Positions 27,316 to 61,456 of a stretch of 64,000 bases of DNA are shown one piece after another (positions within the stretch are counted from its first letter, which is position 1; every line of letters starts with the position of its first letter). Position numbers and translations under genes: made by a program. The notes under the pieces are model-generated. The model did not search any database. It saw nothing but the letters and a program-made list of their open reading frames with translations, and was not told the origin of the DNA. Location of the stretch: NCBI GenBank assembly GCA_000934385.1, contig KN880510.1, positions 40,397 through 104,396 on the forward strand. The letters are read 5' to 3'. The stretch is from Cylindrobasidium torrendii FP15055 ss-10 (taxonomy: Eukaryota; Basidiomycota; Agaricomycetes; Agaricales; Physalacriaceae).

Positions 27316-30300
27316 CTATGCCAACAGCGAGAGCAACTTGTCCTTGTCTTCCTGCTCCTGCATCTTCGACGCTATCCGCGTCCGTGTCTCCTCATCGAAG
27401 CCAACACCCTTCATCATAATCGCCATGAGGTCGTACGCCTTGGGCGCGTCAATCGCAATATCCGGCAAAATCTCCACAGTGAACGCGAGTCCGTCCTCGA
27501 ATGCTTTGATCTCCGCCAGGTTCTTCTCGCGTACTCGCTTGAAAAGGTTGCCCACCAGCTCCGCATCGGCTTGCTTGGACTCAATAGCTCTTGACACGAG
27601 TTTGTCAACGAGGAGTTGGTGATGTGCAGCTGGTAACCGCTGGAAGTAGTCGTCCGCTTCCTCAAGATTCCGTACGGCAAAGAACTCCTTGAGATCTTCG
27701 TCAACTTTGCGCTTCGCGTCGGCATCAGACATGGCGGGGGTCTCCTCCACCGGTGACTCTGTAGCGGTGGGCTCGTCGTCGCCGCTCGCCGCAGTTGTCG
27801 ATTCGATGGGTTTGGAACGCGGTGCAAGAACAAGCTTTCTCCGTACAGGCGCCTCCGCAGGTGCAGAGGGCTCTGCCGCACTTTCCGATTGCTGGGAAAG
27901 CATTTGGAACATGTTCTGGGACGAGGAGTTGGTACGTTGGATCGACTCCCGCTTGTCCTTCTTGCCAGAGTAGATACTGCTCTGAGGTCCAAAGGTCATC
28001 GGTGCGCCGGCAGTCTTGTTGATCTGGCCAAACTTGGAAAGATCGCCAGCCTTGGGAGGTGCACCGCGCATTGAGCCTCCAGCGACTGCCCACCCGTCGG
28101 GCCCAATGATAGACTCGGTACGCTCACCACCGCGACGAGAGCCACCGCGAGACATCGACATCGTACGCAGCTGAGACTCCTTGTCCTTGTCCTTCGCTGC
28201 TTGCTCGTGGACGGCAGCGATGGTTGTCGGGGCAACGACTGCAAGGTTGCGCGGTATCCACCTACGCTCGCGAAGTTCGAGAATATCCTACATGATATGT
28301 GATTAGAAAATGGGAGCAGGAAACATAAGAGCAGACGTACCTGCAGCATGAACTGCATGCGCGAGTTGACGTTGTTGCTCTTGCAGAGCTCCTTCATGCG
28401 AGAGAAGTAGACATCCATATGTGCCTTCGCCTTCGGAGTATCAAGCATCTGGCCGACAGTTGTGAGGAGTTTGCAGAGCGACTCGATTTCCTCCTCCTCG
28501 GGGTTCTCGACGTTACCGAGCAGCTTCTTGACACACTCGTGCATAATTCGCTCTGTCAGCATCTGAAGCTTGAAAAGCTCGCCGATGAATTTGATGAGAC
28601 CAAGACCCTGACGTTTCGCCTTCTGCGCAAGATAATACTCGTCGGAGTACAGCGCGATTTCCTCGTCGGCATTCGTGTTGCCATCCGCGTCTTGTTTCTT
28701 CTCGTTCTCGGCCTTGGCAGCATCGTCCTCGCCCTTCTTGGCAGCGGCAGCAGCAGCAGCATTCTCCTTCGCAACCCAACCACGCTCGAAATCCTCTTGA
28801 CAGCGATTGAGCAGGTATTTGCGGAACAGTTGGCCACCGGCAATGGGTTTGCCCTCCTGGTTCTTGATGCTCTCGTCCTGAACCTTTGAGCTGATCTGCT
28901 CCATCATCTTGCGACATAACCGAGCATACATCTCCGAGAATGCGGCCTCGTCTGTTGCCTTCTCGAAGACAAGACGAATGACTTGAATAAGAGTCTGGCC
29001 GTTCTTCTCGTTCTCCGACTTATTCGCCCAAGAGATGATTTGGTCAGAGATTGAGTCGAATTTGTCCATCGTAAGCTTGTTGAGCAAAGATTTGACCTTG
29101 CGGTCGACCATTTCAGGGGAGTTGTCATCGGTGTTCGCGAGGGTTTTGCGATCCCAGCGATTGGCGGAGACCACAAGAGGCGCGACAGGCTCGAGGTTGG
29201 CAATTGCTGCAGCTTGAGCCGCTGCTGAGCCAAAGCCACTGCCATGATTGGGAGCGCGATTGACGTCGTTGCGCTTCTCGCCACGCTTACTGCGAGTGCG
29301 GTTGTTGCCCATCGGCGTGCCGCCGACGCCGCCTTGAGAGGCCGTGCGCTGCATCTGAGCGGGTCGGGCAAAGCCAGATCCGCCACCTCCACCGCCAGAG
29401 CTTGCCTTCATGAAGCGTTCCTCGCTCGAAAGCTTGGATGCCTGCGTGGAAAAGTTGCCCATACTGAAGCCCGATGCCTTGCCGAACGAGCCACCGGGGA
29501 AGGCACCCCCACCAACAGATGCCTGGCGCTGGGGAGCTGAGATTGAAGAGGAAGGCCGATGACGTCCAGAACCGCCGCGAGACATAGGATACGCGGGCTG
29601 CTCATTGGGATCCAGGCCGATGGATTCGAGTGGCGGAAGGTTATCAGGCTTGTCCTTGCAAATGGCCATGAACTGGAGCAGGAAGTCGCGGTCGTACCTG
29701 GAAAATGTCAGTAAAAGCTGGGAATATTTAGCGAAGCTGTTACCTGAACTTCCCATCCGTGCTGCCTGCGTTGAGTTCAATGGCAGGGCTCTTGATTCCC
29801 TCAGGATAGTTGGCGGCGTCGAGTGATTCCAAACGCTTTGCGGTAGCGAGAGCAGAGGGGAGCGCAGGAGAGATGCCAGGACGGTTGGCAGAGGTAAGGT
29901 CGAGAGGGCCGGGACGACGACGAGTGAAGTCTTGCGAAGAGGTATCAATCTTGGGCAACTCCTTCTTGTCGGCCTTGAGCTCGGTTTTGGTCTCAACGAC
30001 TTCGCCGTCCTCAATCTCTGCAGCAGGAGCTTTCGCGGCATCAGCCTCCTTGGCAGACGCTTCTTCCTCTGCCTGGCGAGCGTCCGAATCAGCCTTGGCC
30101 TTCTCTTCGTCCTCCTTAGCCTTGCGGTCCGCCTCTTCCTTCGCCTTGAGCTCTGCCTCTTCCTTTGCCTTGAGCTCGGCAGCCTTCTGAGCCTCTTCTT
30201 TCGCCTTTGCCTCTGCCTCCTCCTTGGCCTTGAGTTCAGCAGCTTCCTTGAGCTTAAGCTCGGCCGCCTCTTTCTCTTGACGCTCCTTTAGCTCGGCAGC

Positions 30301-31924
30301 TTCCTTCTCCGCCTTCTCCTTGTCGGCCTTTGCCTTCTGTTCACGCTCCTCTTTCTCTTTGGCCTCCTTCTCTAAACGCTCCTTCTCGGCTTTCTGTTTC
30401 TCGGCTGCTGCATCGCTCGCCTCTTTTGCCAACCGCTCCTGTTCAAGCCGTTTGCTTCGCTCCTCGACCGACTCCATGCGGACAGCCCGCCGACTGGGGC
30501 TAGGTGGTACAGCGGCAGCCGCCGACGGTAAGGCGTGCGCGACTGGTGCGGGCGATGCGTGCGCCTTATTCGCATTTAGCGCTGCCAAGCTGATTTCTCT
30601 ACCATCGACACTCTTCAGTGATACTGAAACTTTATTTTGCCGCGGCACGAAGTCGCGAGCGGCGGCGTTGAAGGCGGGTGGCCGATTCAGTGATGATGGC
30701 GTTGACGGTGGGGAGGAAATGCTGCCTGATGGTGTATGTGACAGTTGTGGCGGAGGGGATGTATGTTGTGCAGGGGTGGCGGGCGCAGGTGTCGGTGTGC
30801 CAGGTGTGGGCATGGGGATGGGCCCATTCCGCGGAGACATGGCCATTCCCTGTGGAGGTACGCCAGCAGGCATACCGTTTGGCATGTATCCCCAAGGTGG
30901 GTACATGTATTGCTGTCCAGACGGATCTACGTACTGTATTCGTGGTTAGTGCGTGCTGAATGACAGAAACAGCGCCGCTACGCACATAGTAACCGCCTGT
31001 CCACATTTGTGGGGGAGGTGGCATCTGGGCCATTTGCCCAGGCATCTGACCAGGTGGAGGCTGATGGGCAAGACGAGGACTCCCCATGACAGGCTGAGCT
31101 GCGCCAGGTGCGCCGCTTGGTTGCCGTTGCGGTGCATTCGGGGCTTGATGTCTGTAGGATGGCGACTTGGACCCTGAGGCAGAGTTGCCATTTGGGCCTG
31201 CGTTTTGGGGCGGCGGTCGCTGGCCATTTGATGGAACGAAGGGGGTAAATGAGGGCGGCTGAGTGGGTGGTGTGGTGGTAGAAGATGACGCAGTAGGTTG
31301 TGAGGGTGGGAGCGTCGTGGGCCGTACTGCCGGCGAAGACGGCGCAGAGGGCGTCGACGGGGCCCCGCCACCACCTTGGAACATTTTCGCAATGGCGTCA
31401 CGGCTAAGCTTCGCCTTGCTCGCCGGGGCTGTGCCGGCTACGGCTGCCGCCGCGGTCGGGGGTATGGGGCCTTTGGTCTGGATGGGACTTTGACCATTTA
31501 ATTGTGTCGGGCCAGCGGGGACGCTTCCAAACGTTTTGACCTCGATTTTGCTCGGCTGGGCGGGCGTAGGGGCGGGCGACGTTGGGATCGGTGCCTTGGC
31601 GTTGACATCGTCTATCGATCCAAAGGAGACCGCGGGTCCTACGGGCAGTTCAGATGGGCGGGATGCCTGCGCCGCTACCTGAGCGTACGCACCCTGTTTG
31701 CCAGTCGCTGTGCTCACGCTCCTCGGAATGCCAACACCATCCTTAATCGGTACGTTCGGGCCAAGATTGCTTGGTCGGCGAGAATGTGACGGTCCAGTTG
31801 GCGTGGAGGGTGACGGTGCGGGTGATGCGGATCGCGATGATGAGGATGGAGGACCTCGAGCCCAAGCAGACTTTGTTGGAAGTGGGTTGGGAATCTTCGC
31901 CGTAGCAGTTGACGGTTTGCTCAT
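27316..31924 (-). CDS. Translation initiation factor eIF4G
   Basis: Scaffold of the eIF4F cap-binding complex. Exons are 31924-30986, 30933-29744, 29697-28341 and 28287-27316, giving 1485 residues. The N-terminus is a long Pro/Ser/Thr/Gln-rich disordered region. It is followed by a highly charged Lys/Glu/Ala coiled segment with recurring AELKAKEEA (30050-30420). The eIF4E-binding motif YDRDFLL (about 711-717) comes just after the KFR|YDRD splice junction. The MIF4G domain, which binds eIF4A, follows NRWDRKTLAN and includes LLNKL, EKATDEAAFSEMYARLC and the ALYSDEYY region. The C-terminal MA3 domain spans VDEDLKEFFAVRNLEEADDYFQRLP to the end. No W2 domain is present, as in other fungal eIF4G. 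Two partial paralogs lie at 39018-43749. Confidence 0.96.
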
Positions 31925-32762
31925 TCTAGCAGAATGTCAACCTCTGCGTCCTAGCTGCCTTTGCCGCTGCACGCACGAATTTTTATAGTTTATCGAGTTG
32001 GTCGATGTAGATTGCGGTTCGGAGGGGGGAAGCACTTTGTATTTCTGTCTCGTGTGGGTCGGTCGTCAAAAGTGACCTGCCAGCAGGAGAGAAAGCAGAA
32101 GCAAGCACGAGTCTTGTCTTAGAATAAGAACAAGTCTGTCTTCGGATGCTTGGCGAGAAGCGATCCGGTATAAAGTCTGTCCTACAAGCAAGGACGTGGG
32201 ACAAAGACAACTTGTGCCGTCCTGCCCAAAAAATCACCATCCGGACCGGGGTAGACCGATTATGCAGCCAGGTGCTCCGCGGCCAGAGTCACTCAGGCCT
32301 GACGCAGTTCCCGGAAACGCTACAACTTCGAGTTTATTCTGGAAATGGGATAACCTATAGTATTTCCATATTTCCTGCATTTCTGCCAGTCCAGGAGGAG
32401 GCATACTGGTCAGACGCAATTCATTGATGCCATTCGGTTAACCCCGAAAAGCGTATAGCTACCCTGAACTCACGCATTTCTCGGATCCTCCAGACAGCGT
32501 GCAGCCCATACGGCGCGCTGTATTATGTCCTGGAATACTACCCGCCATTTCAATCAACTCTTATTACGCTTTTACGCCACACCTCCCATTCGTGTCACCA
32601 ACGTGGCTCAGGCGATGTTACAGCCAGCGCCTCATCCCTCTGTTTCAAACTATGACTACGTTGATAAGTAAGATAGTATCTTTCCTGCATGCCCAATCTC
32701 ATAGTACTTGAGTAGAGCAACGTCCTGTCATTCCTTCGACGCTTCCTCCACTAGAGTCGTTG
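31925..32762. promoter_or_regulatory. Divergent promoter region between eIF4G and an F-box gene
   Basis: About 840 bp between divergent start codons. Short open frames have no family signature. No motif assigned. Confidence 0.35.
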
Positions 32763-34149
32763 ATGAGAGATGCTTCACCAGAGCATGAAACTATAGTCAG
32801 AGGCCTAGTCCACGCATGTGAGGCCTATATGGACAAACTAGCAGAAGAACTTCGACGACTCCATTCTCCCATCCTCACACCCGATCAGCCAAGCAATCTG
32901 TCCAGCGTTCCAATACCAGTAAGCCCGTCATTTGTATTGCACTTGGTATCATGAGGCTCATAGCTGCTCCCAGATCCTTCGAAATGGCATCAAAGATATA
33001 GGTCGTGAGATAAAACGCACTGAGCGTCTCTTGCTCTCATACAAGCCCGTGCTTGCGAATAACGCCCGCCGGCGCATCCCAATTGAACTTTGGGTCATGA
33101 TCTTCATCTACATTACCCCAGAGATGCCTCGGTGGAATACAGACGGTCCCTTCCTCCTGAGCCGTGTCTGTTCATCCTGGCGTAGCATCGCGCACAGTGA
33201 CCGGCGTCTCTGGCCCAAAGTCATCCTGAGCAACGACAGCAACACTTGGCGAGGAGCGCTCGCCCACCTTTCCGTCCGGGGTATCTCGCCTCTGGTCGTT
33301 GTATTTGACCTCATTAACTCACCAAGTGCACCACTGGACAAATTCTTTGCGGACGAGCAAATCCACAACTTCATTGCATCAACCCAAGCCTGTTGGACCC
33401 AGCTCGAAGTCAACACCACAAGGTACACAAGCTACCACATGACCTGGAAGGAGACCATACACTCTTTGCTCAGCGCATCTATGCCTTTGCTTGAGACGCT
33501 TGTCGTTAATTTCTACGGCTCTTCGACGAATTTTCGGAATATTGGGTGTGTCCAAGTTCAAGTACCTGCCCTGAAGACCCTCGTCCTCGAACACGCTCAT
33601 GCCATCACAAACCTCCATGAACAGTTGACTGGCTTCCCTCCCATCCAGTCGCTCATTTTACGTGGAATGGGCATCAGCTGCGACGGAAATCCGACTATCC
33701 TTGAAACATGGCTTCCTTCCCAGCACTCATCGTTGACTACACTCGTTCTGCGCGCCGCAGAATCAGTAGCATGGGTAGACGGTACACCTCTTTGGCTTCC
33801 GCGCCTGACAACGTTCCATCTTGGAGGAAGCCACGACAGAGGCATCATTCGTATTCTCCGTCGTTTCCATCTACCCTCTCTTCGTCATTTGCAACTCGCA
33901 AACTGGGGCCATGCAGAACCTCTGTATTCACTGGCGTCGTTGTTCACTGAATATTTACCGCAGTGGAAGTGCCCGCTGGAGTCGTTAACCTTTGTCGCAT
34001 ATTACTTCGAGATTCGTGGGGTTTATACGCAGCAAATTGCAACGATGGATGAGCTGGAGAAATTTGCTCGGAGCGTCCCGACGCTAAAGGATCTGAGAGT
34101 CCAGGAGTATCAAGGGATGAGCGTTCCGAATCTGTTAACCTCTGCATAA
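32763..34149 (+). CDS. F-box domain protein
   Basis: Exons 32763-32918 and 32974-34149 encode 443 residues. After a short coiled-coil N-terminus (ERLLLSYKPVLANNAR) comes an F-box-like motif, RRIPIELWVMIFIYI...LLSRVCSSWRSIAHSDRRLWPKVIL. This is the form very common in agaricomycete F-box families. The rest has leucine-rich segments (LETLVVNF, LKTLVLEHA, LTTLVLRA, LRHLQLANW). Probably a substrate adaptor of an SCF ubiquitin ligase; the target is unknown. It belongs to a different subfamily from the tandem pair at 59532-62845. Confidence 0.8.
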
Positions 34150-34326
34150 CATGCTCATCACGGCTAGTTGACACCTTCCTCCTCATCTTTGTGTTTACGC
34201 ATGTTTGTAGATGAAGCCTAGGTGCGCATCATATGTATGTATTTAAATCGTCCAATATCGAACCAAGATACCTGGACGTTCGTAAAGCCTCCTATAAGAA
34301 GACGTCGTTCTCCACTACTTGTTGAT

Positions 34327-36139
34327 CTAAAGTGTGTACTCCTCGTCATCGGCACCGGGGTGCCCCCATCTCACCATATGGGTCGGCCCATGTTGCCAGT
34401 CCTCGACCCTCCTCGCCGCCAGCCTTGACATTGTTGATGACCACGTCCCCAAAAAAGCCGCCCCTCCAGCTTGGATCGCCGCATCAATGAAGACAGGATA
34501 CCTACACGAGCTCAGCAATCGCAGCCTCCAGCTCTGTAAAATGGAAATACGCACCAGGCTCCGTAACGCGCCATCGTCTGGCTGTGGTCCGGGGTGACCC
34601 ACCCTTCGTGCGCGAAAACCTCCGCCCACCAATCCGGGTCGGTCTCATCGCTGGTCACAACGACATGCTCGACTGTAACCCCCGTGCGCTCGAGAACCTT
34701 GGCCTTCTGCTCCTCGACGCGCTTTGCATAGGCAGACACAGGCGCATAGCACTCCTGGAGGGTATACGACCCACAGAGCGCCTTGAAGTCATGGTGGCGG
34801 ACGTGAATCGATATGTACTAGGTAAACGGAGTCAGTGCAACGCGTGTATGGATGAGGAAGAACTGCGTACAGGCGGCGTAGGCGCATCCTCTGGAATTCC
34901 AATAGCCTTCTTCACGTAGGCATTAGCTAGATCGACAATGGCGGGTGTGAAGTGCGCATATTTCCCTACAAAGCGCCAGGCAGGCGCAAAATCCCAGTCG
35001 TATTCATCACCCTACGGATCAGCATCAGTGTGGATATGGGTGAATAGCTGAGGAAACCTACACCTTGGCTTCCCACGTAGTAAAGGTAATCAAAACAAAG
35101 AAGCTGTTCGTCCGGAGGAAGGGAAACACCATGTTTTGGTGATGGAAGAGGTGTGATGAGGTTCTGATTCCTTGTGTCCGAGAACCCGAGGCGCGCGAGA
35201 GACCAGAAACTGGTATGTCTGTGTGCCCAGTGCCCCCCATTCCATCCACTAAACCTGACCCACTTGGGCGCTGTGGTGTACGAGATATCTCATCGACTTT
35301 TAGCAAAAAAACACATATGCAAGACGGGGTGTGCATACCAAGCGAGTAAGCTTGAGGAATCCAACTATCCCGTGGATGTTTTTCGCTATCCTGGGAAACT
35401 TCCCACACGTTCCAACATCCTAACTCATCTATTTGCTTGTCGGCGCTGATGTTCTTGACTTGACTCCACTCCACGATAGGTATGCCCATATCGCGCTGCA
35501 TTCTCGGCAAGTCGAATACTTGACCGAAGTCTACTTCGCTAGCGCTCCCTTTTTCCAGGACATGTGTAGGCGTGAATGGTGGGATGATGGGTGCTCTTTC
35601 AGTGAGGAGGCCGAGATAAATCAAGTTGAACTGCGACGAGGCTGAGCAGACAGACGAAAGAGGGATATAATTCTTACGTAGGTCATAACATCGTTAGCTA
35701 GTTGAATTTGATTAGAAAGAGGTCAAACGACGATTGTAAACGCACTCCATCCTGCAGAAGGCCACGAAGTTATGTACTTGGTATCTGGCCTGAGCGCATC
35801 TACATAGTGAGATGACAAGTCAGATATGGACATAGAACGGGCAGACGACTGACCGCGGAAATGGACTGCTGGTGCGGTCTCTCGCAACACGTTTCGCACA
35901 GTGGGCGCGCTCACTTGTGTGTCTGCCAGATTTGTGTCTGCTGACGAATTGCAGCTGCTCCCCACGCTCTCGAAAAGCGGCTCGCGGAATCTCCAACCTG
36001 CCCCCAGGCAGAAAACAATCACGAGCGCGATTCCCACGAAGACACCGAATCTGGAGCGTCGAAGGATCTGGCCCGCTGAGGCTGTCCGACGATGGCGCTT
36101 GAGGACAACATCTGGCACGAGTTGGCGGTCGGATTTCAT
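34327..36139 (-). CDS. GDP-fucose protein O-fucosyltransferase-like type II membrane protein
   Basis: Eight exons: 36139-35854, 35799-35746, 35697-35678, 35630-35339, 35288-35062, 35011-34871, 34817-34555 and 34501-34327. They encode 485 residues. A cytosolic basic tail (LKRHRRTASAGQILRRSR) is followed by one membrane anchor (FGVFVGIALVIVFCLGAGW), giving Golgi-type type II topology. The catalytic part shows the order of the basidiomycete O-fucosyltransferase-like family as I know it: YITSWPSAGWTNDVMTYFNLIYLG, TERAPIIPPFTPTH, IHVRHHDF, VVVTSDETDPDWW, GTWSSTMSRLAARRVEDW. HVRHHDF sits where related enzymes have an R-x-GDF-like loop. The acceptor is unknown. Exon 3 is 20 nt. The first intron (54 nt) is in frame and stop-free, so its retention would still give an open protein. 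Confidence 0.7.
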
Positions 36140-37381
36140 GAGAAGATGCTAGAGGAGAAGCAAGATGCCTGAATTCAGTTTGGGTTTCGAAACGCGCGCG
36201 GAGCGGTGATAACCTCAGCCCGCTTGACCAGCCTACTCGGTGGGCGCGGGCCTGAGAGGACGAGATAATCTGACAAGGCGCTTGACAAGGACACCAAGCA
36301 TCCAGTTTAGAATGGCAGAATGATTGGTGGGAAATGCGTTGCCCAGTGCGCATTGCAATGACGGCGCGACACAAAGACACCGATCATCCATGATCGACCT
36401 TCCGAAAGTTCATGCTGAAAGCCTCAGAGGCGACATATATTAGCATTCTGGTGATTCCTCCAGGATTACTCTACAGACTACTCAAGTTGTTTCTCAAGCT
36501 GCCACCATCTTCCGACGGGCAAAAAGTGCAGCGTGCACAAGGTGCAACATATCGACTACCCAGTGGACAGTCCAAGGCCACAATTATCGTAGAGTTAGTA
36601 AGGATACCAAAAAAATGAAGCGTGTATGTGCCAAACGTCGCTCTAGTGGGAAGACTGCGCCTCAGTATCAACGTTGAGCTGGCTTAAGAACGATGTCAGG
36701 GCTGAGAGCAACAACCAAAGATGGGAATAGATGATACCAAGGTATCCGAGCCCTACTCCATTCTTTCTCGAAAGACAAGGATGCAAACAGGACCTCTGAG
36801 TTATTGCCGTAGTAGCAACTTCGGTGCCAGTCCGCGTTTGGAATTCAATTTAGAATGTCCAAAACGAGCGCAAAGGTGATCACCAACTCGTGTGGCAGCC
36901 ATTGAAATATTGACTCCGCGGATGCTCCTCTACTAACTAACATAGCTTCTGAGCAGAACAGTAGCAGAACGGTGGGAGAAAATGGAGTCACGGATCCCAA
37001 AAGCTTCGTATCATATGTGAGCGGTTGAAACCATTTAGACTTTGCTATTGGGGACTACGAGTACTTGCCGGATCCATGGTAGCATTGTGCGTCAAGGACC
37101 TCGCCAAACCGTGTAACTGAGCCGTTGAGTGGATCCAAAGGTTCAAAGGTTCAATGTCACTGAGAGTCTGCTCGGCCTAAATCAGCAGCAACTTTTTTGA
37201 CAGGGAGGCAGTCTGGATGGGGGATGCTGATTTTGGCGCTGTCTCACGTCTACCAAAGGTTGTTGTATGTTGTGGAAATGCTGTAGGCCGTTTGCTAAAT
37301 CCCGTGAGATTATCCTGTAGAGCGTATGTGTAGTTTACATTGAAATTTACAGTAGAGTGGGTCCTAGATGATGTCCTGCGC
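36140..37381. other. Intergenic region, no supported gene
   Basis: About 1.2 kb between the start of the O-fucosyltransferase-like gene and the stop of the SWIB gene. Only short, signature-less frames. It includes the O-fucosyltransferase promoter. Confidence 0.4.
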
Positions 37382-38306
37382 CTAGCTGCCATCTTCGTCT
37401 GGGTAGAGATGCCTGCAGTACGGTTTAGCAGGGAACACAAGAAAGATATGGTTAACGCACGCGCCCAGCTTCTTGTTCATTTGGAACATGTCAATCTTGT
37501 CGACACTGAACACTGCCCGAAATTTATCGTCCGCAAGGATTTCCCTTTTGTTGTTTGGGTTTTGGAGTTCCTTGTCCTTGATATACACCCAAAGCTTTTT
37601 CACCACCTGCGGCCGAGACTCCTTCTCGCAGCCAATGATTTCAGCAAGGGGGGCGCTGGGAGTGTCAACCGGGGTCAAGATGGCATCGCAAGGAATTGAC
37701 TGACCTCAGGCGCATCAATTTGCTGAACCCGCCCCCGCCTCCGCCCTCCCGTTTCTTGGCAGGTTCAGCCCGTTTCCTCTTTTTTGTCGGCGCCTCGCTG
37801 GATGACACGTCGCTGTCCATATCCGAGTCGATGGTGTCCGCGCTTTTGTACTTGCCGCGCTTCGTCGGGCTCTTCTTCGCGCGTGTCTTGGTCGCTGGCT
37901 TGGCGGTGCTCCGCCGTGAGCGGGCGTTGAGCTCACTGGACAGCTGGCGCGCGATCTCCGCGTCGCCATCGTCCTTGGTCGCCTTCTTGCCTTCATCGGA
38001 GTGTGACGTCTTGCGTCTTTTGGGGCTGGATGGCCCCTCTTCCACTTTGTCGTCGTCGTCTTCGCCTTCGGCATCCTCCTCCTGCTCCTCCTGCTCGGGC
38101 TCTTGGTCTGCCTGGAATTTCGCAAACTCCTCCTTGATGATAGCCTTGACTTCTGCAGCATTCTCATCCATCCACTCCTCTGTTATGTCCTCGTCCATTT
38201 GGGGCAACTTCTCCCGGACGACCTTCACGCTAATCTGGTCCAGGTCGACGTCAGGCGCATTGAGAATGTTCTGTACGAGAAGTGCGATCCGGGAGGTGTC
38301 AGCCAT
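37382..38306 (-). CDS. SWIB/MDM2-domain protein with N-terminal DEK_C-like domain (Uaf30/Spp27-like)
   Basis: Exons 38306-37705, 37655-37461 and 37412-37382 encode 275 residues. Residues about 5-60 (SRIALLVQNIL...ISVKVVREKLPQMD) resemble the DEK C-terminal helical domain seen at the N-terminus of fungal SWIB proteins. A very acidic stretch and basic nuclear-targeting clusters (SPKRRKTSHS, PTKKRKRAEPAKKR) follow. The C-terminal SWIB domain contains LAEIIGCEKESRPQVVKKLW, ELQNPNNKREIL, VDKIDMFQMNKKL and ends HLYPDEDGS. Related proteins act with Pol I (UAF30 in the yeast upstream activating factor) or as chromatin factors (Tri1); which role applies here is inference. Confidence 0.9.
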
Positions 38307-39017
38307 GGTTCAAGTATACAGAGGCGGGGCGAGATTCGTCAAGGGGCAAGTTGGACTTGGGCAGAAAAAGAGTGTTGTTTCGAGCGCACAGCCACTGATT
38401 TCATTTTTGTCTCCGCGGTTCGAACCCGACGGCGTCCATCTTCACGACCACCACCGCTTGGCAGCAGGGGAAAACCAAGGGAAAACGAATGAATAGTTAG
38501 CAAAGCTGCGAATGTCTTGTCTGCACAGCGCGCACGAACAAAATCGGACGGGAGGACGTCCATGAGGTCGAAAACTATGCCGGCATGCCCACTGTGGCCG
38601 ACTTTTATATTCATACCATCATGGTTGTTCCCATCCTCAAAGGAGTATTCTTCGGCCAGAACGAAAGTGACGTTGCTTCCATATACGTACGTCTGGGGCT
38701 CGGTAGGACCTATACTTCACTGCCACCATTGCGGTTTCTGAATGGATCTGAAGAGGAGGGTTAGCCTTTGTGTGGCACAATGCGGTCGGCGCTTAGGTGC
38801 TTCCCACGCTGGGACCCTTGATCATTCCATCGTGAAGCCATCGAAATTTGGTTCCTTCTTCTTTCCAGGTAACTTGCTACTTTGTACATCCTCTGAACCA
38901 ATACTATGGCGCACATTTCGTGGACTTCGACGTCAACGGGTACGGCTTCAACATCTATTCTATTGATCCCTTGGACAATCTCTCTGAAACTCTCATCTAG
39001 CGGTTCAATTCGGCTGT
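38307..39017. promoter_or_regulatory. Divergent promoter region between the SWIB gene and the first eIF4G-like paralog
   Basis: 710 bp with no supported gene. A GGTTCGAACCC word at about 38419 resembles a tRNA B box but has no cloverleaf around it. Confidence 0.35.
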
Positions 39018-40638
39018 ATGGACGAAGACAATGTCAACATATCCCCAGTGACTGAGTCGTCCGCGCCTATCACAACACAAGCGAAACCATTCAAAATAGA
39101 GTCGTTTGGAAGTGTCCCCGCATCCTCCACTACCTACCACATCGTGGCTCCATCTGCGTTCACCACTGCTCGATTTCTCAGCCCCCTGGAGTCTGTTGAT
39201 TACCCTGAAGGAGTCCACGGTCCTGTTATGGCTGCTAGCAACGCTACTGACCAGCGGGTGAATTTCAGGTGGGTAGGCTCTCTCGCTGCCAGACTGTCCT
39301 GTTGAACAAATCCAGATATGATCTTGACTTTCTACTGCAATTTCAATCAGTCGGCATAGACAAGCCTGACGGGCTTCCTTCGCATTTCCACTGTGTGGCA
39401 CCACTTACGTCCTCTGCGATGGTACGCAAGTTCAGAGAGCTAGTCCACAAGCTATCGGAGGGCAACTTTGACTTCGTCTCCTCCCAATTGATCTCGCTGG
39501 CCAACGAGCCTGGATGTGCGAGCAACGGACAAAAGCTTGCCCATCTCACGCGTGTATTGTCTGAATGCGCGACTCGTCCCTCAATCACACCGGCGTTGGT
39601 CGGGATATATGCTCGCCTGTGCGGGGCAATCATGGAAGGGCTGAGCCCAGCGGTTCAGGACCAGGACATCACCAACACCAGAGGCATCCCTCTGAGCAGC
39701 ATCAATCTTTTTCGAGGATGCCTCCTCAATCAAATAAAGGAAGACTTCGAGCGTTTCTGTTTGCGGACGAAGAGATATTCGCATGCTTCAAATCCAGGAA
39801 GAAACAAGGAGATTGTAGAATGCAAAGGCATCAGGGTTGCTCGATTCCTCGGCGAGCTCTTCAAGTCGAAGATGACGGTAGCAATGGGGAGGTTTGTGCG
39901 TACCCGAGCAAAGATACTCATAAAAGTCGACAACCTCGAGGATACAATTGAGCCGCTCTGCGAGCTGCTCGTAACAGCTGGGGAAAGGCTCGAGGATACC
40001 AGAGCCCAACATTGGGAGAAGTTGAATGATTGCTTTACTCGCATGGAGATGGTCTGTAAACGCGAGGATATCAGTTTGCGTCTGAGAAAAAGGTTGCAGG
40101 TCAGTCTTTCCATCGTCCGGAGTGAAAGAGCTCTCACGCGCTACTGCGTTGTATTAGGGTGTCATTGATTTACGAACGTACGAATGGACGCCTCGAAATC
40201 AATTGCCCAACAACCAGAGTGAAGAGAGTGAAGCCTCCTCCGAATCCGAGTCGTCAATGTGTGCTGCGCCGTTACCGTCCGAGTCAGTGCCCGTGGCCAA
40301 TGCACCTGTTTGCAAGTATCATCTCAAGGGTCCGGGCCAATGCACATTTGGGTGAGTCCTGACGTTACCTATTGATATGCCCGCTCATACAGAAGCAGCA
40401 TACATTGTCGCAAGTCACACCCAGATGCCCTACTGCCGTCCGAGGTTCTCTGTAAATGGGGATCTGGTTGCCGCTACAAGCACAATGGGAAGTGAGCAAC
40501 AATTTTCATTCTTAGTCGCACTCGGCCTCATATAACCTGACTAGATGCATATTTTTGCATGATGCTGCTCTAGGTCCTCATGCCTATTATGTTCGGCGTG
40601 GTGGTATTCTACAGAACGGGATGTATGTCCTGATGTGA
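39018..40638 (+). CDS. eIF4G-derived paralog A: eIF4E-binding motif, MIF4G domain, two CCCH zinc fingers
   Basis: Exons 39018-39268, 39316-40099, 40158-40351, 40399-40491 and 40545-40638 encode 471 residues. The N-terminus keeps short eIF4G-like pieces (KIESFGSVPA, SVDYPEGV). It then has an eIF4E-binding motif YDLDFLL (about 85-91) at the same phase-2 intron junction as in eIF4G (FR|YD). A diverged MIF4G domain (about 120-345) contains EGNFDFVSSQLISLANE, IYARLCGAIMEGLSPAVQDQDI and FLGELFKSKMT. There is no MA3 domain. The C-terminus carries a CX9CX5CX3H finger (C397, C407, C413, H417) and a second CX5CX7CX3H cluster (C428, C434, C442, H446). Intact splice sites and an open frame argue against a pseudogene. 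It could bind eIF4E and RNA to regulate translation; this is inference. Confidence 0.85.
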
Positions 40639-41090
40639 GAGGTTGCTCATGGACGATTCGCAACCCAAACAATGTTTGGATTTGTCTTATTTACATGAAG
40701 TTCGTGTGTTAAACGTGGATATCACTATGTGCTTATTTTTGCAACCAAATTGGACTCGTTGTCGATTCTATACATGTCTTTGCTCCAGCTTTGCTACATA
40801 ATTCCTACGGGAAATGCCGAGAGCTGCGTTTCTTACATACAAGCTACGATCGAGTAGACCACGTCTTTGCAAGTACCATCATGTTGAAAAAGTGCACTCT
40901 CCCTAATGGCCTATATATCGTCTTTCCACTTGCGATACATGTCTTTTTCACTAATTTCATATCAAGTGAATGGCTGGCCGGTGTGCTCATGTGATGGGGC
41001 GTGGACGAGGCCTTTGGTGGTTCTTTTCCCAGACCCGAGTCTTTACTAACTTGCAATACCACCACCACTACCAACACCATCGAACAAACG
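40639..41090 (+). other. Gap between the two eIF4G-like paralogs
   Basis: About 450 bp. No further eIF4G-like coding sequence is recognisable, so the second paralog seems to start directly ahead of its MIF4G domain. It presumably contains its promoter. Confidence 0.4.
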
Positions 41091-43749
41091 ATGATAGAAT
41101 CTCATCTCGATGGCGATGACTCTGCTGGCGGTGTTGCAAGTACAGGTGACCGCTTAAAAATCCTTATGCCTGTCGTTGCCTCCGCCAATCGTCGCTGGGA
41201 TCGCAAAGCCCTCGCAAACGCTGATGACAACTCCCCGGAGGTGGTCGACCGTAAGGTCAAGTCATTACTTAACAAACTCTCATTGCCGATATTCGATTCA
41301 ATTTCTGACCAAATCATCTCTTGGGCAAACAAGTCGGAGAACGAGAAGAACGGCCAGACTCTCATTCAGGTCATTCGCCTTGTCTTCGAGAAAGCAACAG
41401 ACGAGGCCGCGTTCTCGGAGATATATGCTCGGTTATGTCGCAAGATGATGGAGCAGATCAGCTCGAAAGTTCAGGACGAGAGCATCAAGAACCAGGACGG
41501 CAAGCCCATCGCTGGTGGCCAACTGTTCCGCAGATATCTGCTTAATCGCTGCCAAGAAGACTTCGAGTATGGGTGGGCCGCGAAGGAGAATGCTACCGCG
41601 GAGGAGAACTCGAAGCATCAGCTCCTGGGGGGCAATGCGAATGGCGACGAAGAAATTGCGCTGTACTCCGACGAATATTATGTTTCGCAGAAGGCGAAAC
41701 GTCGGGGTCTTGGTCTCGTCAAGTTCATTGGCGAGCTTTTCAAGCTGCAGATGTTGACGGAACGGATTATGCACGAGTGTGTCAAGAGGCTGCTAGGTAA
41801 CGTCGAGAACCCCGAGGAAGAGGGGATCGAGTCGCTGTGCAAGCTCCTTACGACTGTTGGCGAGATGCTCGACACTCCAAAAGCAAAGGCGGACATGGAT
41901 GCCTACTTCTCTACCATAAAGAAGCTTCGCGACAGCAACACCATCCACTTGCGTATCCAGTTAATGTTACAGGTATGTGTTTCCTGCAGTGTAACCCTCC
42001 CATTCTGTTGACGTATATGCAATGCATAGAACATCCTTGAACTCCGCGAGCGCAAGTGGCTACCGCGCAACCTCGCAGTTGTTGCTCCACCAGCTGTCCA
42101 AGAGCAAGCGGCAGATGCTACGGACAAGCAACCTCAGCCAGGCGAAGTGCAGACGATACCAATGTCTCGTAGTGCCTTTCTTTGCGGTGATGAGCCTGAG
42201 GGCGCCGAGTCCACCATCAGCTCCAACCGTTGGCCAGTCCCTAGCAAATCAAAGCGTAGTGCAACCCCCGAAGTTGGCAAGACAACTTCCCGCAAGAAAA
42301 GCAAACGGAAGCGGGGGACGCCACGATCCGACTCGCCATCCCCGAGCGCGGCTCAAATGTCTTCACAGCAGCCACAAAGCCCAACAGTGCCCTCTTCACC
42401 TGAGCAAGCGCCTATGCGGAGAAAGCTTATCCTTGCACCACGTTCCAAACCCATCAAATCGGCAAGTGCGACCAGCGTCGATGTCGAGACCACCGCTACA
42501 GAGTCACCAGGGGAAGAGACCGCAGCCACGTCCGATGCCGACGCGAAGCACATAGTTGACGAGGATTTGGAGAGGCTGTTTGCCTTACGGAACCTCGCGG
42601 AGGTAGACGACTACTTCCAGCGATTGCCAGCTGCACATCACCACTTTCTTGTTGGAAAACTCGTGTCAAAGGCTCTTAAGTCCACGCAAGGGGATGCGGA
42701 GCTGGTGGGCGATCTTTTCAGACGAGTACGCGAGAAAAACCTCGCAGAGGTCAGGGCGTTCGAGGAGGGTTTCGCGTCCACTTTAGAGGTCCTAGTACCG
42801 GATGTTGTGATTGACGCGTCAAAGGCGCACGACCTCATGGTGATTATGATGAAGGGTGTAGACTTCGACGAAGGCACGCGAATGCGGCTAACGTTGAAGA
42901 TGCCCAAGGACAGTGAAAGCCCACTTGCCCGCTTTTCTAGTCCACCTGAGTGCGGGCAGCCGGCGCTTGGATGCACACGACCTCTTGACATTAACGACGG
43001 TGTCCCGCCTGCGCAGGACTTCCACCCTGAATCCCCTGACGAGGGGACGGTCTCGGAGGTCTTGACCACACGAGTCCTAGTTTGGGCACTTTACTCCGAA
43101 ACCGACAAAGATGTCCAGGGCCTTTTCCAGCTCAGTAAAGACATACGTGATGCTGCCGTCGAAACCCCTGCGTCGAGTGCAGCCCATGCACGGATGTGCA
43201 GAGTTTTGGTCGAGAATATCCACCCATGCGTCCAGGATCCCGCCGTAGTGGACAACGAGGGGATGGTCCTTGCAGGCGGAGAACTATTCCGAAAGCAACT
43301 ACGGGATGGCTGCAACCACGCTTTATTGCGCATGTTCCCGGCAGCAAGCGCTGGGACCTACTCCGAGGTCCTTAGCAGGCAAAGCAAAGTTGGGCTCACC
43401 CGGTTTATTGCTGAGCTCCTCAAGGTTGAGGTGCTTTCCAAGCAAGATGTACATCGATACATACGTGGGATGTTAACGGCCCTAAACAAATCATACGACG
43501 AGGACGGCCTCGAATCACTCTGTGTGCTCCTCAACCACTCAGGCAAAGTCCTTGAGTGCTCGCGGATTGGATCCACGCTCGTGAACGATTATTTACTTGG
43601 TATTCAGGAATTAGTTGCGAAAGCCTCGTCTTCTTCACGCATGCAAACCGTGTTGCAAGTAAGCTGAATGCATTGATTCTGCGCCGTTTGCATCATTGAC
43701 ACATTTCTAGAGCACCCTAGAGCTTCGCAGACACGGATGGTCTATATGA
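41091..43749 (+). CDS. eIF4G-derived paralog B: MIF4G - MA3 - MIF4G protein without eIF4G N-terminus
   Basis: Exons 41091-41972, 42030-43658 and 43711-43749 encode 849 residues. The start MIESHLDGDD lies just before RRWDRKALAN, the block that precedes MIF4G in eIF4G. The first MIF4G (to about residue 290) is nearly identical to the window's eIF4G, also at nucleotide level. The linker and an MA3 domain (about 473-590, DEDLERLFALRNLAEVDDYFQRLP) follow. Then comes a second, strongly diverged MIF4G-like domain (about 631-836) with ARMCRVLVENIHPCVQDPAV, GGELFRKQL, LTRFIAELLKVE and GLESLCVLLNHSGKVL. It ends LQ|STLELRRHGWSI, mirroring the LQ|xILELRE junction that follows MIF4G in eIF4G. No eIF4E- or PABP-binding part is present. 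A DAP5-like cap-independent or competitor role is possible but unproven. Confidence 0.87.
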
Positions 43750-44098: not shown

Positions 44099-47000
44099 TC
44101 ACATGTGCCCCAATGCTCGAGGGACATGGGCCAAGCGGCCGAGAGAAGAAGGCATATGCACTGGAAGCCGTCGAGTGGGCGCCTGTGACTTTGCCTCTGG
44201 CTGCGACACCGGAGGCTTGTCTTCAAGCTCCAAGCGCAGTCGGACCAGACCTTGTCCTCCTTGCAGTTCGCATAATACATCTGCACTCTTGCTCGAGGCT
44301 GCGCTGCCCGCAGAAGAAATGTGTCTCCCAATCTTTCATGGTTTCAGTCAGTAAGTGTTAAAGTAAGAGGACCAACGACTCACATCAACCTCGCCCTCCC
44401 CAAGAGGCGCATCCTTCCCCAAGGCACGATGATCAAACAATGAAATATGCAGCTTCGATGTTCCTCGCACAGTAGCAAAGCTAAAGGATTCGTTCCTGCA
44501 TAGTTGTCAGAACAAAGACGTTAATCCCCATTGACAAGCGGACACACCACTCAGGCATAGCCGTCTTCCCATTGGGAGACGTTGTCTTGAACTCTTCGTT
44601 TCCAAGCCGCATTTTCAGGTATGGTCTAGCCTCTTCAACAGCGAAGTCCTTTGCGTTGAGCGCTGTGACCTTCAAGCTGCCTACACCAATGAAGTTGGAC
44701 CCAGAGGCTGTTAGATGTAGAGACGAAGCCGACTGCCCCGGGCGGGCTGGATGAGATGCTTGTCCTGGAGGGAGACTCGGGGGTACCGCGGGTGTTCTTG
44801 CTTCTTTCGGGCGCCTCATAACGAGTCCAGTCAACCCACGGATGACACCCTTGCCTGCGTGTAATGGTAGGCCACCGATGGTGGTCATTGTCGTGGTCAT
44901 CGCTCGTCCCGCCGACGAAAAGGTTGAAGTCCTTCGACGCGACTTGATCACCATGCCGGGCTGGAAGAGTAATCTCACCCGGACGCGCGACTTGCCACTG
45001 TGCTCAGCCGATGCGAGGGTGAGGTTGATATCGCGTTCGACCGACTGGAATGGCTCAAGCTCCGCGAGGTTGATGGATGCGCTTCCAAGACTCTCTGCTT
45101 GCTCGATCTGATTCCAATCCCACACCTCGATGACACATTCGGCATCCACTCTAGAAGACTTGGGGCATTGTAAGCATGTATGTATCGTTCGTGCTGGGGG
45201 TACGCACCACAACAGCAGTGAAGTCTTCGTTCCAATGGGGGTTCAAGGTCTTTTTCTTGGTCTGCGACTTGAACACCTTCTGGTCGTTGATTGTCACAAC
45301 TGTGAACGGGTCGGAAGTGCCTATGTCGTCTGAGTCAATCGTTGGCCAATGACCAATGTATCGAAGACTTGCCTGAGCGATCAACGGCAGGTAAGTCGCG
45401 TGCGCGAAGAACAGTCATCCGTAGGGTGCCTTGGTCTATAGTGGTGTTATTGATGAGGCTCAGAGAGCAGAGGCGCGACTGACTGTTAACACTTTCCCGT
45501 GCCTCCAATGTGACCGGTACGGGAACGTAGCGGGCTTCGAGAGTAACCGTAGAGACTCTGTCGCAATCTTCACTCGTCAAGGTGTAGGTCTGGGGGCCCT
45601 CCTGCGTGACGCCCCATGAGTAGTGCACGACAGAAAGATACAACGCACTCACCATCGCCGCTCGTAAGAAAACCTTTGCATCCCCTCGCCACTGCCCGAT
45701 AATATCATCCTTCTCACCCTCGTCGGCCTCATTCAAGCGCAGCCAGACTTGTCCGAAGTCCAATTCCTTGACGAAGCCTTCGCCAGTGTAGTTCCACTGC
45801 ATCTTCTTCCCTCGCGCACGCGTTGTAGCAAAGCACGGCCAGTAACCGTTGTCCAGCAAAACCTCGACACGAGCCTTCTTGGACAGTTCGCCTGACATGA
45901 CATTGAAGATGATGATGCCGGACGCTGCAAGGATAATCAGCAAGTTAGTGCCAAAAGCAAAACCATGTAACACACGTTGCGAGAGCAGCTCCTCAATCGA
46001 CATTTCAAGGCCCGTGTCCTCCTCCTTCGCAATTCCTTCCTGATCGGCTCCCTCGGCGTCATCGCCATTCTGGGACCCATCATAAACCGTTGTCGAGGCG
46101 CGGCTGCTCGCACCGTCGCTATTTGTTTCCACAGCGTCCAAATGTGTAGCAACAGCTGGCCGACCGACAACTTCCCCGTCTTCATCATCCGTCGCATCGC
46201 CCCCGTCTGCATCCTGGTTTGGGTCAACCTGGTCTATCTCATTTGCCGCACCATCGAACTTCAGCCCCTTCAGCTTCATCGCTGGCACGAACTCCGCGCG
46301 ATAGTGTAACAGACCCTTGAACTCGCCGCTTTCGTCCTGGCGTAGTGGATCAGCGGCCGTCTTGGTTCCAGTCGACTTATACGGAAATTTCATGGTATCT
46401 TCGTCACTCTCAACAGCTAAGTCTGCGACGCGTAGTTCAATTGATCCAAGAGAGCGATCCTTTGAACTGCCTTGAGTATATTGCAATCCATGCATACTAT
46501 GTTCGGCGTACCTTTGTCAAATGTTGATAGTCCATGCACTCGAGCAATAGTGTTTCCTTCAGCGTGTGCACCGGAATATATATGAACTGTTTCCAGACAG
46601 GATTGAGGTCTAGAAAGGTCAGATACCTGGCATTTTCGACAGTATTGACACGACGCACTGTTATTGATGACCTCCGTACGCCCCAATGTCACATTTGCAA
46701 CCTGCACACGCGTATAAGGGTCGCTCTTCCCGCCAAGGGCTCCCTCGACGTTCTTCACATCAGTCGCTTTCTCGACGAACAATCGCACAACGCCGATGGG
46801 GGGAGTATAACGTTCAGCACCATGCAAGCTTCCGGCCATATTCAAAGGCTTCCATTCCGCCGAAAGCCGTACTTTGCCTACGCCACCTTCGAGACAGAAC
46901 CAGTCAACAGCGCCTGAGGTTGTAGCCGACAAGACGTCCTCGAGGCCGAGGGTGACCCAACCGATGCGTTTGTCGTCGTCTTGGATTTGAATGGTGATAC

Positions 47001-58637: not shown

Positions 58638-59531
58638 CCTTGCTGGCGATGGAACCGATGTGCTTTACCGCAGAGAGACGTTGTCGTTATATACGCGAAG
58701 ATGGTCCGTGGTGGTTCTGACCAGAGTCGACTCTTCGAATGACGGGGAGAGCCCAGCGTTGACAATGCTGTGTTGACTAACGCCCGGTGCCCGGTGCCTG
58801 CGAGCCGTTGTTGGGTTATCGTTTTGCTCGCACTCGGCTTGCGCTAATGCACCTGGACCGAATGCCGGGCCTCCGCTGTGTGTTTGATGATTTGGTGGGT
58901 TCATCTGAGCAAATCCGCGATCTCGTGGTTTGTACCCAAGCATCATGCATGTCGTTGATCGCGGCGTCGATGTCAAGTTGTCAACCCATGCTTTCCTGAC
59001 CGAGGCTACTCGCAATTTCAAGAATTTTGCAAGCTCGAACGCCTAAGCGGACAATCCACCTTATCCTCACCAACACTCCCGGAATCTCTGCGGGCGCAAA
59101 CCAAGTACACGCAGTCTGGGAATTTCTGAGCCTTGAACGAAGCACATCATTCACTTTGAAGTGGTACGGCCATTCGCCGCTGAAGAGTCCTCGCTTTCAA
59201 ATGCCTCAGAATGTATGAATGTATCACCTCAATCGTTGTGATAGTGCTGCGAGTTGGCATTCATGTAGCACAAGAATGAAGTTCAAGATGCAGAGTCTTG
59301 ACAGCGGTGGTGGGTGCTGCATTACATAAGTACATTAAACCTACAAGCTGCTGCGATTGTCAATAATCAGGCAAAATCCCAGTCGGACTTCTACATATGC
59401 TGGACGAGACAGACGGCCTTGAACCTCCGGAACCAACTGTCTTATTGATGAGCCTCGTGCTTCCCAAACCGACCTAAAATGTGCGGGTGCGGCCACTTTG
59501 GCCTTCCCGCTCACCACGACCACTCTGGACA
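58638..59531. promoter_or_regulatory. Divergent promoter region between the hydrolase and F-box copy 1
   Basis: About 890 bp. Minus-strand frames here are hydrolase 5' UTR or spurious. From about 59430 rightwards the sequence is similar to 61390-61456, i.e. part of the F-box duplication unit. Confidence 0.4.
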
Positions 59532-61210: not shown

Positions 61211-61456
61211 AGTAAGTATGAGTACTTAGGATAAAATTTATGGATCACATCCCTTGTAAAGAGCAAAGCAAAACCGTCTCCCATCTCCTTTCTCCCCCTT
61301 AGCGCATGCCATTTATGAGTGGACGGATCCTAGGCGAACCTCTGAAGACGGTCTCATGAACTACTCAAAGTGAACCTCCGAGATCGATTGCTTGATTGAG
61401 ATGCCTCGTGTTTCACAAACTCTTACGCTCACCACGACCACTGACCAGTCGGCACA
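61211..61456 (+). other. Spacer between tandem F-box copies
   Basis: Copy 1 and copy 2 have matching 3' flanks (TATGAGTACTT...GGATCACATCC) and matching 5' flanks (GAGCCTCGTG / GATGCCTCGTG), so this spacer marks the junction of a tandem duplication. Confidence 0.6.

What the first reader, a model, noticed from the sequence alone, without database searches (positions are those of the whole stretch)
27316..43749. eIF4G locus with two adjacent, inverted, partial eIF4G paralogs forming a candidate lineage-specific translation-control cluster
Seen: full-length eIF4G on the minus strand and, about 7 kb away on the plus strand, two neighbouring genes made of eIF4G parts. One keeps the eIF4E-binding motif and gains zinc fingers; the other keeps MIF4G and MA3 and gains a second MIF4G. 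Known: truncated eIF4G relatives such as DAP5 and Paip1 regulate translation in animals. Inference: the pair may split eIF4G functions between two proteins. I know of no described fungal system of this form.
Basis: partly seen in the sequence, partly recalled or inferred. Interest (0 to 1): 0.85.

Follow-up and report, generated by a model that had tools for sequence, protein, structure and literature searches.

The report
Mushroom eIF4G gene with remodelled duplicates
Next to its normal gene for the translation factor eIF4G, the mushroom Cylindrobasidium torrendii carries reshuffled, still intact offspring copies of that gene, one with added zinc fingers and one with two core domains; other mushrooms appear to have made comparable copies on their own, but what the copies do is unknown.

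Summary
The window is contig C80 of Cylindrobasidium torrendii FP15055 ss-10. A full eIF4G lies on the minus strand (27316-31924). Seven kb away on the plus strand lie two intact eIF4G-derived units. A (38906-40638) has the eIF4E-binding region, a divergent MIF4G and two CCCH-like fingers. B (41091-43749) has MIF4G, a weak MA3 and a second, degenerate MIF4G. Shared introns show DNA-level duplication. B's first MIF4G is young and constrained (pairwise dN/dS 0.15, most amino-acid change on B). A's MIF4G and B's second MIF4G are only 40% and 33% identical to the parent, yet open.

A's fingers were found in no other of 137 proteins, but multi-MIF4G or truncated eIF4G paralogs recur in Agaricomycetes and many look independently born. 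My best reading is auxiliary eIF4F scaffolds: A an eIF4E-binding, RNA-binding modulator; B an eIF4E-independent, eIF4A-binding scaffold. Function and expression are untested. New variant of a known kind.

The parts
27316..31924 (-). canonical eIF4G, 5 exons (31924-31693, 31638-30986, 30933-29744, 29697-28341, 28287-27316), 1467 aa = public P0003
38906..40638 (+). paralog A, 6 exons (38906-38939, 39001-39268, 39316-40099, 40158-40351, 40399 or 40393-40491, 40545-40638), 488-490 aa
39001..39268 (+). A: retained N-terminal eIF4G motif (AVQFG...FGSVP) joined directly to the segment before the eIF4E-binding motif
   Evidence: sequence comparison with canonical AVSFGSIDD...FGSVP
39316..40099 (+). 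A: eIF4E-binding motif YDLDFLLQF followed by divergent MIF4G (40% identical to canonical MIF4G)
40158..40638 (+). A: IDLR..W.PRN end of the MIF4G module, then two CCCH-like zinc fingers in place of MA3
41091..43749 (+). paralog B, 3 exons (41091-41972, 42030-43658, 43711-43749), 849 aa as a separate gene
41168..42903 (+). B: MIF4G-linker-MA3 segment copied from canonical 29181-27360 (two aligned pieces, 76% and 80% nucleotide identity)
42960..43749 (+). B: second, degenerate MIF4G (33% identical, first helix missing) ending in LQ|STLELRRHGW
40623..41097 (+). A-B junction: in the public fused model a 344-nt intron, a 14-nt exon (40967-40980) and a 117-nt intron; in the two-gene model the end of A, an intergenic region (TATATA at 40912) and the start of B

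Best explanation
Shown: the locus holds eIF4G and two intact eIF4G-derived units made by local DNA duplication, with internal deletion in A, zinc fingers added to A, and a second MIF4G in B. B's MIF4G-MA3 is a young copy, or was refreshed by gene conversion. Inferred: these are auxiliary, specialised eIF4F scaffolds. A would bind eIF4E through YDLDFLLQF and RNA through its CCCH fingers, while its MIF4G lacks the NRW segment kept by the eIF4G proteins compared, so A would act as an mRNA-directed eIF4E sequester or recruiter, like an RNA-bound 4E-BP. B would bind eIF4A through its well-kept first MIF4G without eIF4E and act as a DAP5-like, eIF4E-independent scaffold; its second MIF4G would have drifted into another protein-interaction surface.
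For: A: PF12152 above cut-off; the eIF4E-binding stretch aligns with eIF4G chain 6fbz_B at E 4e-5 (that it is a fungal eIF4G-eIF4E complex is recalled); fingers pass Pfam in the isolated tail. Fold models: A's MIF4G matches DAP5 and then eIF4G chains, B2's matches eIF4G chains first (pLDDT 76 and 78; TM about 0.5-0.66 for those matches). B1: dS 0.60, dN 0.088, ratio 0.146; with 27-30 of 29-33 polarised MIF4G changes on B against five outgroups, B-branch omega is about 0.26 by my arithmetic. Intron positions before AVxFG, at FR|YD and at LQ|xxL are shared. The NRW segment before the MIF4G is present in canonical, in B1 (with one extra R) and in 7 of 7 other eIF4G rows that were cut correctly, and absent from A and B2.
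Against: No expression, binding or phenotype data. A+B may be one protein, which would put eIF4E and eIF4A binding in one chain. The finger evidence is weak in full-length scans (16.0-17.8 bits vs cut-off 24.6). B's MA3 is below cut-off. Selection is laxer outside B's first MIF4G (MA3 ratio 0.28, linker plus MA3 together 0.42), so partial decay is possible. dS for A and B2 is near or at saturation, so selection on them rests on open frames and fold only. Of the yeast eIF4A-contact sites I could map, neither settles the matter for A: S612 is S in canonical and B1 and E in A, but G or A in 6 of 7 other eIF4G rows; E628 is Q in canonical, B1 and A alike (sites).
Confidence: 0.37

Rival explanations
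1. A and B are one gene encoding a 1335-aa alternative eIF4G with an eIF4E site, CCCH fingers, three MIF4G and a weak MA3: a single scaffold that binds cap complex, RNA and eIF4A.
For: The public annotation P0001 is this protein, and it is reproduced exactly from the DNA with GT-AG introns. The 117-nt linking intron has a perfect TACTAAC box (2 such boxes on the + strand of the 64-kb window) and the 344-nt one a CTAAT with its A 12 nt from the 3' end. Multi-MIF4G proteins are annotated elsewhere: 17 of the 136 other proteins examined carry two or more.
Against: It needs a 344-nt intron, a 14-nt exon and a 117-nt intron, while the 11 other introns of the three units are 46-61 nt. The gap has GC 0.38-0.50 and negative codon scores in all frames, a weak test because A's own exons score mostly below zero too, and a TATATA at 40912 (18 TATAWA on this strand of the window, so weak). 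TACTAAC, its branch A 48 nt from the 3' end, could also mark a 5' UTR intron of B.
Confidence: 0.38
2. The copies are non-functional duplicates on the way to decay, with no selected role.
For: B evolves far faster than the parent. Many paralog tips are long and copies are scattered by lineage across Agaricomycetes. Linker and MA3 ratios are higher than in MIF4G.
Against: Neutral drift at 0.3 substitutions per site would give about 13 stops in the B1-MA3 stretch; 0 of 500 simulations stayed open. Frames and splice sites of the much more divergent A and B2 are also intact. In Sanghuangporus (four species) and Pleurotus (two) divergent MIF4G copies are shared between species.
Confidence: 0.15
3. 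The copies are decoys or specialised factors kept by conflict with mycoviruses or other parasites that exploit eIF4G, which would explain repeated birth and fast change.
For: Apparently recurrent births with acceleration of the copy. IRES activity is reported for fungal viruses (title and start of the abstract of PMC5874917 in the listing). [quoted passage not shown]
Against: No infection data; fast change also follows from relaxed constraint; no positive selection was shown (pairwise ratio below 1).
Confidence: 0.08
4. Assembly or haplotype artefact.
For: Draft assembly with 494 contigs; reads not available.
Against: B1 is only 76-80% identical to the parent at the DNA level and A and B2 have no detectable DNA match to it; they cannot be misassembled copies of one allele.
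Confidence: 0.02

Closest known systems
eIF4G1 of fungi (TIF4631/TIF4632 in yeast)
   Same: PF12152 eIF4E region, MIF4G, MA3 and intron positions of the local eIF4G, from which A and B derive
   Different: A lost most of the long N-terminus and MA3 and has CCCH-like fingers; B has no eIF4E region and carries an extra MIF4G; yeast's two full-length isoforms share one architecture (passages of PMC2817733)
DAP5 / eIF4G2 (p97, NAT1)
   Same: B, like DAP5, lacks the eIF4E-binding region and has MIF4G then MA3
   Different: B has no W2 domain hit and has a second degenerate MIF4G; its first MIF4G is sister to the local eIF4G, so it arose independently
4E-BPs (eIF4E-binding repressors)
   Same: A has the canonical motif that 4E-BPs share with eIF4G (start of the abstract of PMC4164784, listing)
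   Different: A also keeps a MIF4G fold and has CCCH-like fingers
Paip1
   Same: small MIF4G protein; Paip1 chains are among the fold matches of A and B2
   Different: no PABP-binding motif was looked for; A has the eIF4E motif
Other Agaricomycete eIF4G paralogs (for example P0009 Pleurotus pulmonarius, P0021 Lyophyllum shimeji, P0004 Mycena filopes, P0006/P0008/P0013/P0019 Sanghuangporus, P0084 Hymenopellis)
   Same: extra, tandem or truncated MIF4G proteins related to eIF4G; some share a contig with their eIF4G
   Different: no CCCH pattern like A's in any of the 136 other proteins

Membership tests
eIF4G (scaffold of eIF4F) | MIF4G domain of the eIF4G type | tested here: met
   A 57.7 bits, B 213.6 bits with two stretches, cut-off 30.8; best PDB matches by sequence are eIF4G-family chains (eIF4GII for B, eIF4G2/DAP5 then eIF4G1 for A)
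eIF4G (scaffold of eIF4F) | eIF4E-binding region (PF12152, YxxxxL+hydrophobic) | tested here: inconclusive
   met for A (42.6 bits, cut-off 27), not met for B as a separate gene; met for the fused model (41.0 bits)
eIF4G (scaffold of eIF4F) | MA3 domain | tested here: inconclusive
   A none; B 18.5 bits, below the 23.2 cut-off, but 70% identical to the parent's MA3
eIF4G (scaffold of eIF4F) | binds eIF4E, eIF4A and ribosome-bound factors | not testable with these tools
   needs pull-downs
DAP5/eIF4G2 | no eIF4E-binding region, MIF4G plus MA3 | tested here: inconclusive
   B lacks PF12152 and has MIF4G, but its MA3 is below cut-off, and this holds only if B is a separate gene
DAP5/eIF4G2 | C-terminal W2 domain (PF02020; recalled as defining) | tested here: not met
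   no hit in B at E 0.1
4E-BP | canonical eIF4E-binding motif | tested here: met
   A: YDLDFLLQF; match to 6fbz_B, E 4e-5
4E-BP | competes with eIF4G for eIF4E and represses translation | not testable with these tools
   needs binding and reporter assays
CCCH zinc-finger proteins | C-x(7-9)-C-x(4-6)-C-x3-H finger (pattern recalled) | tested here: inconclusive
   one strict match and a second looser one in the A part of P0001; zf-CCCH_4 28.7 bits in the isolated tail but 16.0-17.8 in whole proteins, cut-off 24.6; PDB matches only E 0.04 (YTH1) and 2 (Nab2)
Paip1 | PABP-interacting motifs beside the MIF4G | not tested
   no motif search was made

The most novel reading that the evidence does not exclude
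Mushroom-forming fungi repeatedly and independently spawn fast-evolving factors from their own eIF4G, often on the same contig as the parent, recombining MIF4G modules with CCCH fingers, kinases or BTB domains. Cylindrobasidium would then have a two-part (or fused) lineage-specific translation-control device, A aiming the cap complex at chosen mRNAs and B running eIF4E-independent initiation, possibly driven by conflict with mycoviruses.
Probability: 0.2. Interest if true: 0.75.

Novelty: new variant of a known kind. Interest (0 to 1): 0.5.

Why it matters
eIF4G is a central, conserved hub of translation. A clade that keeps making and rewiring extra copies would be a natural experiment in how initiation gains specialised scaffolds, and would let one test whether development or virus conflict drives this. 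It also warns that several mushroom proteins named 'armadillo-type' or 'ARM repeat-containing' in databases are eIF4G relatives, some possibly mis-joined gene models.

Tried and rejected
Rejected: retrocopy origin (introns kept at homologous places); assembly duplicate (DNA too divergent); A and B2 being recent duplicates of each other (26% identity); other eIF4G copies elsewhere in the genome (P0001 and the A-B DNA as queries matched only this contig; the MIF4G profile also hit C111 and C136, and I did not identify those genes); a finger donor gene in the genome (only the A exons themselves). Led nowhere: A alone as protein query gave no hit among 4655 candidates, perhaps a limit of the word prefilter; residues 1-485 of P0001 gave 20 hits, P0001 and 19 others, mostly long fungal eIF4G-like proteins. 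The Pfam column of that list cannot show A's fingers, since it does not show them for P0001 either; a pattern search of all 137 proteins found the finger in P0001 alone. The placement of A and B2 in the trees is unsure (long branches, warning). NCBIfam gave nothing useful. Paper searches for eIF4G or MIF4G with basidiomycete terms, gene duplication, tandem duplication or mycovirus listed no paper on these paralogs, judged by titles and abstract starts (listings capped at 25 of 33, 25 of 204, 8 of 9). Site models of selection were not possible without DNA of other species. First A and B models and an A end coordinate were off by one or two bases; corrected (A ends at 40638).
Full report
WHAT IS THERE. 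The window is bases 40397-104396 of contig C80 of a 29.3-Mb genome. Protein search returned two public proteins from a 104396-base contig of Cylindrobasidium torrendii FP15055 ss-10 (P0001, P0003), an agaric of the Physalacriaceae. P0003 (1467 aa) equals my 5-exon translation of 31924-27316 minus letter for letter, and P0001 (1335 aa) equals a joined model of the two plus-strand units.

ANATOMY. A (38906-40638) starts with a remnant of the canonical N-terminus (AVQFG...FGSVP against AVSFG...FGSVP), jumps over roughly 540 residues of the parent (positions 114 to 660 of P0003) to the segment YPEG...FR|YDLDFLLQF with the eIF4E-binding motif, then a MIF4G, the closing IDLR..W.PRN, and two CCCH-like fingers in place of MA3. 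B (41091-43749) has about 26 codons without a DNA match to the parent, then MIF4G, linker and MA3 (a DNA-level copy of canonical 29181-27360 in two pieces at 76% and 80% identity), then a linker and a second MIF4G that lacks the first helix. Introns before AVxFG, at FR|YD and at LQ|xxL are in homologous places in canonical and A; the LQ|xxL intron occurs also after each MIF4G of B. This is DNA duplication with internal deletion, not retroposition.

AGE AND SELECTION. Canonical versus B1 MIF4G: 84% amino-acid identity, dS 0.60, dN 0.088, ratio 0.146; MA3 ratio 0.28; linker plus MA3 together 0.42. Against five outgroup eIF4G proteins, 27-30 changes are unique to B and 2-4 to canonical in MIF4G, and 14-22 against 3-6 in MA3; the MA3 asymmetry is not significant with Coprinopsis as outgroup (chi-square 3.2) and is with the other four. 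If dS is split evenly, B's MIF4G evolves at about 0.26 and its MA3 at about 0.5 (my arithmetic). Drift at 0.3 substitutions per site would leave about 13 stops in this stretch; 0 of 500 simulations were stop-free. A and B2 MIF4G are 40% and 33% identical to canonical and 26% to each other, with synonymous sites near or at saturation. Their open frames (0 of 5000 and 0 of 2000 shuffles fully open) and predicted MIF4G folds argue that they are real proteins: A's model matches DAP5 and eIF4G chains first, B2's matches eIF4G chains first, with TM-scores of about 0.5-0.66. The models were built with eIF4G relatives in the alignment, so this is a weak test. B1 looks younger than its neighbours A and B2, so the middle segment was either inserted late or overwritten by gene conversion from canonical.

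ONE GENE OR TWO. The joined model needs introns of 344 and 117 nt around a 14-nt exon, while the 11 other introns are 46-61 nt. The gap has GC 0.38-0.50 and negative codon scores, but A's own exons score mostly below zero as well, so that test is weak. It holds the only TATAWA between 38300 and 41100 (40912; such words occur 18 times on this strand). For the joined model: GT-AG borders, a GTATGT donor, and a TACTAAC box in the second intron. I favour two genes, about 60 to 40. Transcripts would decide.

RELATIVES. B as query found 1778 proteins with E up to 0.001 among 7999 scored candidates, of which 120 were listed and could be used; the A part of P0001 found 20, of which 17 were new. Of these 137 proteins, 18 (P0001 among them) have two or more MIF4G domains over 150 profile columns, 118 have one and 1 has none. 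A CCCH pattern like A's occurs in P0001 alone, strict or loose (1 of 137). In a tree of 70 domains from 52 proteins that I picked by hand out of the 120, B1 is sister to the C. torrendii eIF4G (100/99), and many paralogs elsewhere sit with proteins of their own genus; a few do not (for example Marasmius crinis-equi P0029), and 31 of 67 inner branches are drawn open for low support. In the larger FastTree, I named 28 species sets, of which 27 had at least two domains; 14 of 27 were monophyletic. Three of these 14 (Somion, Schizophyllum, Ceratobasidium) differ by 0.01 or less and may be one gene or two haplotypes, and Entrophospora is not an agaricomycete. That leaves 10, eight with local support of 0.85 or more and two (Hymenopellis 0.157, Rhizoctonia 0.752) below; Amanita, among the eight, differs by only 0.05. 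Thirteen sets were not monophyletic, among them Cylindrobasidium itself, because A and B2 are long branches of unsure place. The divergent first MIF4G of Sanghuangporus is shared by four species and the divergent Pleurotus copy by two, so some copies survived speciation. Equal contig lengths suggest pairs on one contig in six species (Cylindrobasidium, Pleurotus pulmonarius, Hymenopellis, Fomitopsis schrenkii, Pisolithus tinctorius, Desarmillaria tabescens), leaving out Somion and two unnamed short contigs of equal length. Caveats: public gene models may be split or fused, gene conversion makes old copies look young, and the listing is biased toward proteins like B. Some relatives carry a kinase (P0029, P0010) or a BTB domain (P0108).

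HOW IT MAY WORK. A's eIF4E stretch aligns with the solved eIF4G chain 6fbz_B (E 4e-5), so eIF4E binding is likely. The NRW segment before the MIF4G is kept in canonical, in B1 (with one inserted R) and in 7 of 7 other eIF4G rows, and is absent from A and B2; B2 also lacks the first MIF4G helix. Yeast eIF4G S612, E628 and D595 contact eIF4A (passage of PMC6262856). I mapped the first two through the alignment (numbering inferred; residue types agree). S612 is S in canonical and B1 and E in A, but G or A in 6 of 7 other eIF4G rows; E628 is Q in canonical, B1 and A. These two sites therefore do not tell whether A binds eIF4A. B1, close to its parent, probably does; A and B2 may bind it weakly or not. 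The best reading is an eIF4E-binding, RNA-binding modulator (A) and an eIF4E-independent scaffold (B). All of this function is inference.

LITERATURE. PMC2817733 (abstract and passages) shows that multiple eIF4G variants exist in many eukaryotes, yeast included, so eIF4G paralogy as such is known. PMC11791286 (passages) surveys fungal eIF4E; in the passages seen it does not treat eIF4G paralogs. The listings, partly capped, showed nothing on mushroom eIF4G duplicates.

VERDICT. Real, ordinary in origin (local gene duplication) and unusual in outcome. A new variant of a known kind; interest 0.5, mostly for the recurrent pattern.

Noticed in passing
59423-61210 and 61445-62845 (+): Tandem pair of related open frames, 77.5% nucleotide identity over 1403 columns; they look like F-box/LRR-type genes by eye (no family search run).
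   Followed up: no
44481-46516 (-): Tricalbin-like C2 protein downstream of B (C2_TCB1 67.7 bits).
   Followed up: partly
37382-38309 (-): SWIB-domain gene between canonical eIF4G and A (93.7 bits); an F-box-like frame lies at 32923-34149 (+), below cut-off.
   Followed up: partly
P0029, P0010, P0108 (relatives): eIF4G-like proteins in other Agaricomycetes carrying a protein kinase or a BTB domain; may be real fusions or joined gene models.
   Followed up: partly
A MIF4G model m0d247ad6d382: The mimivirus protein vIF4G (9e5a_B) is a weak fold match (rank 23, E 0.0099).
   Followed up: no
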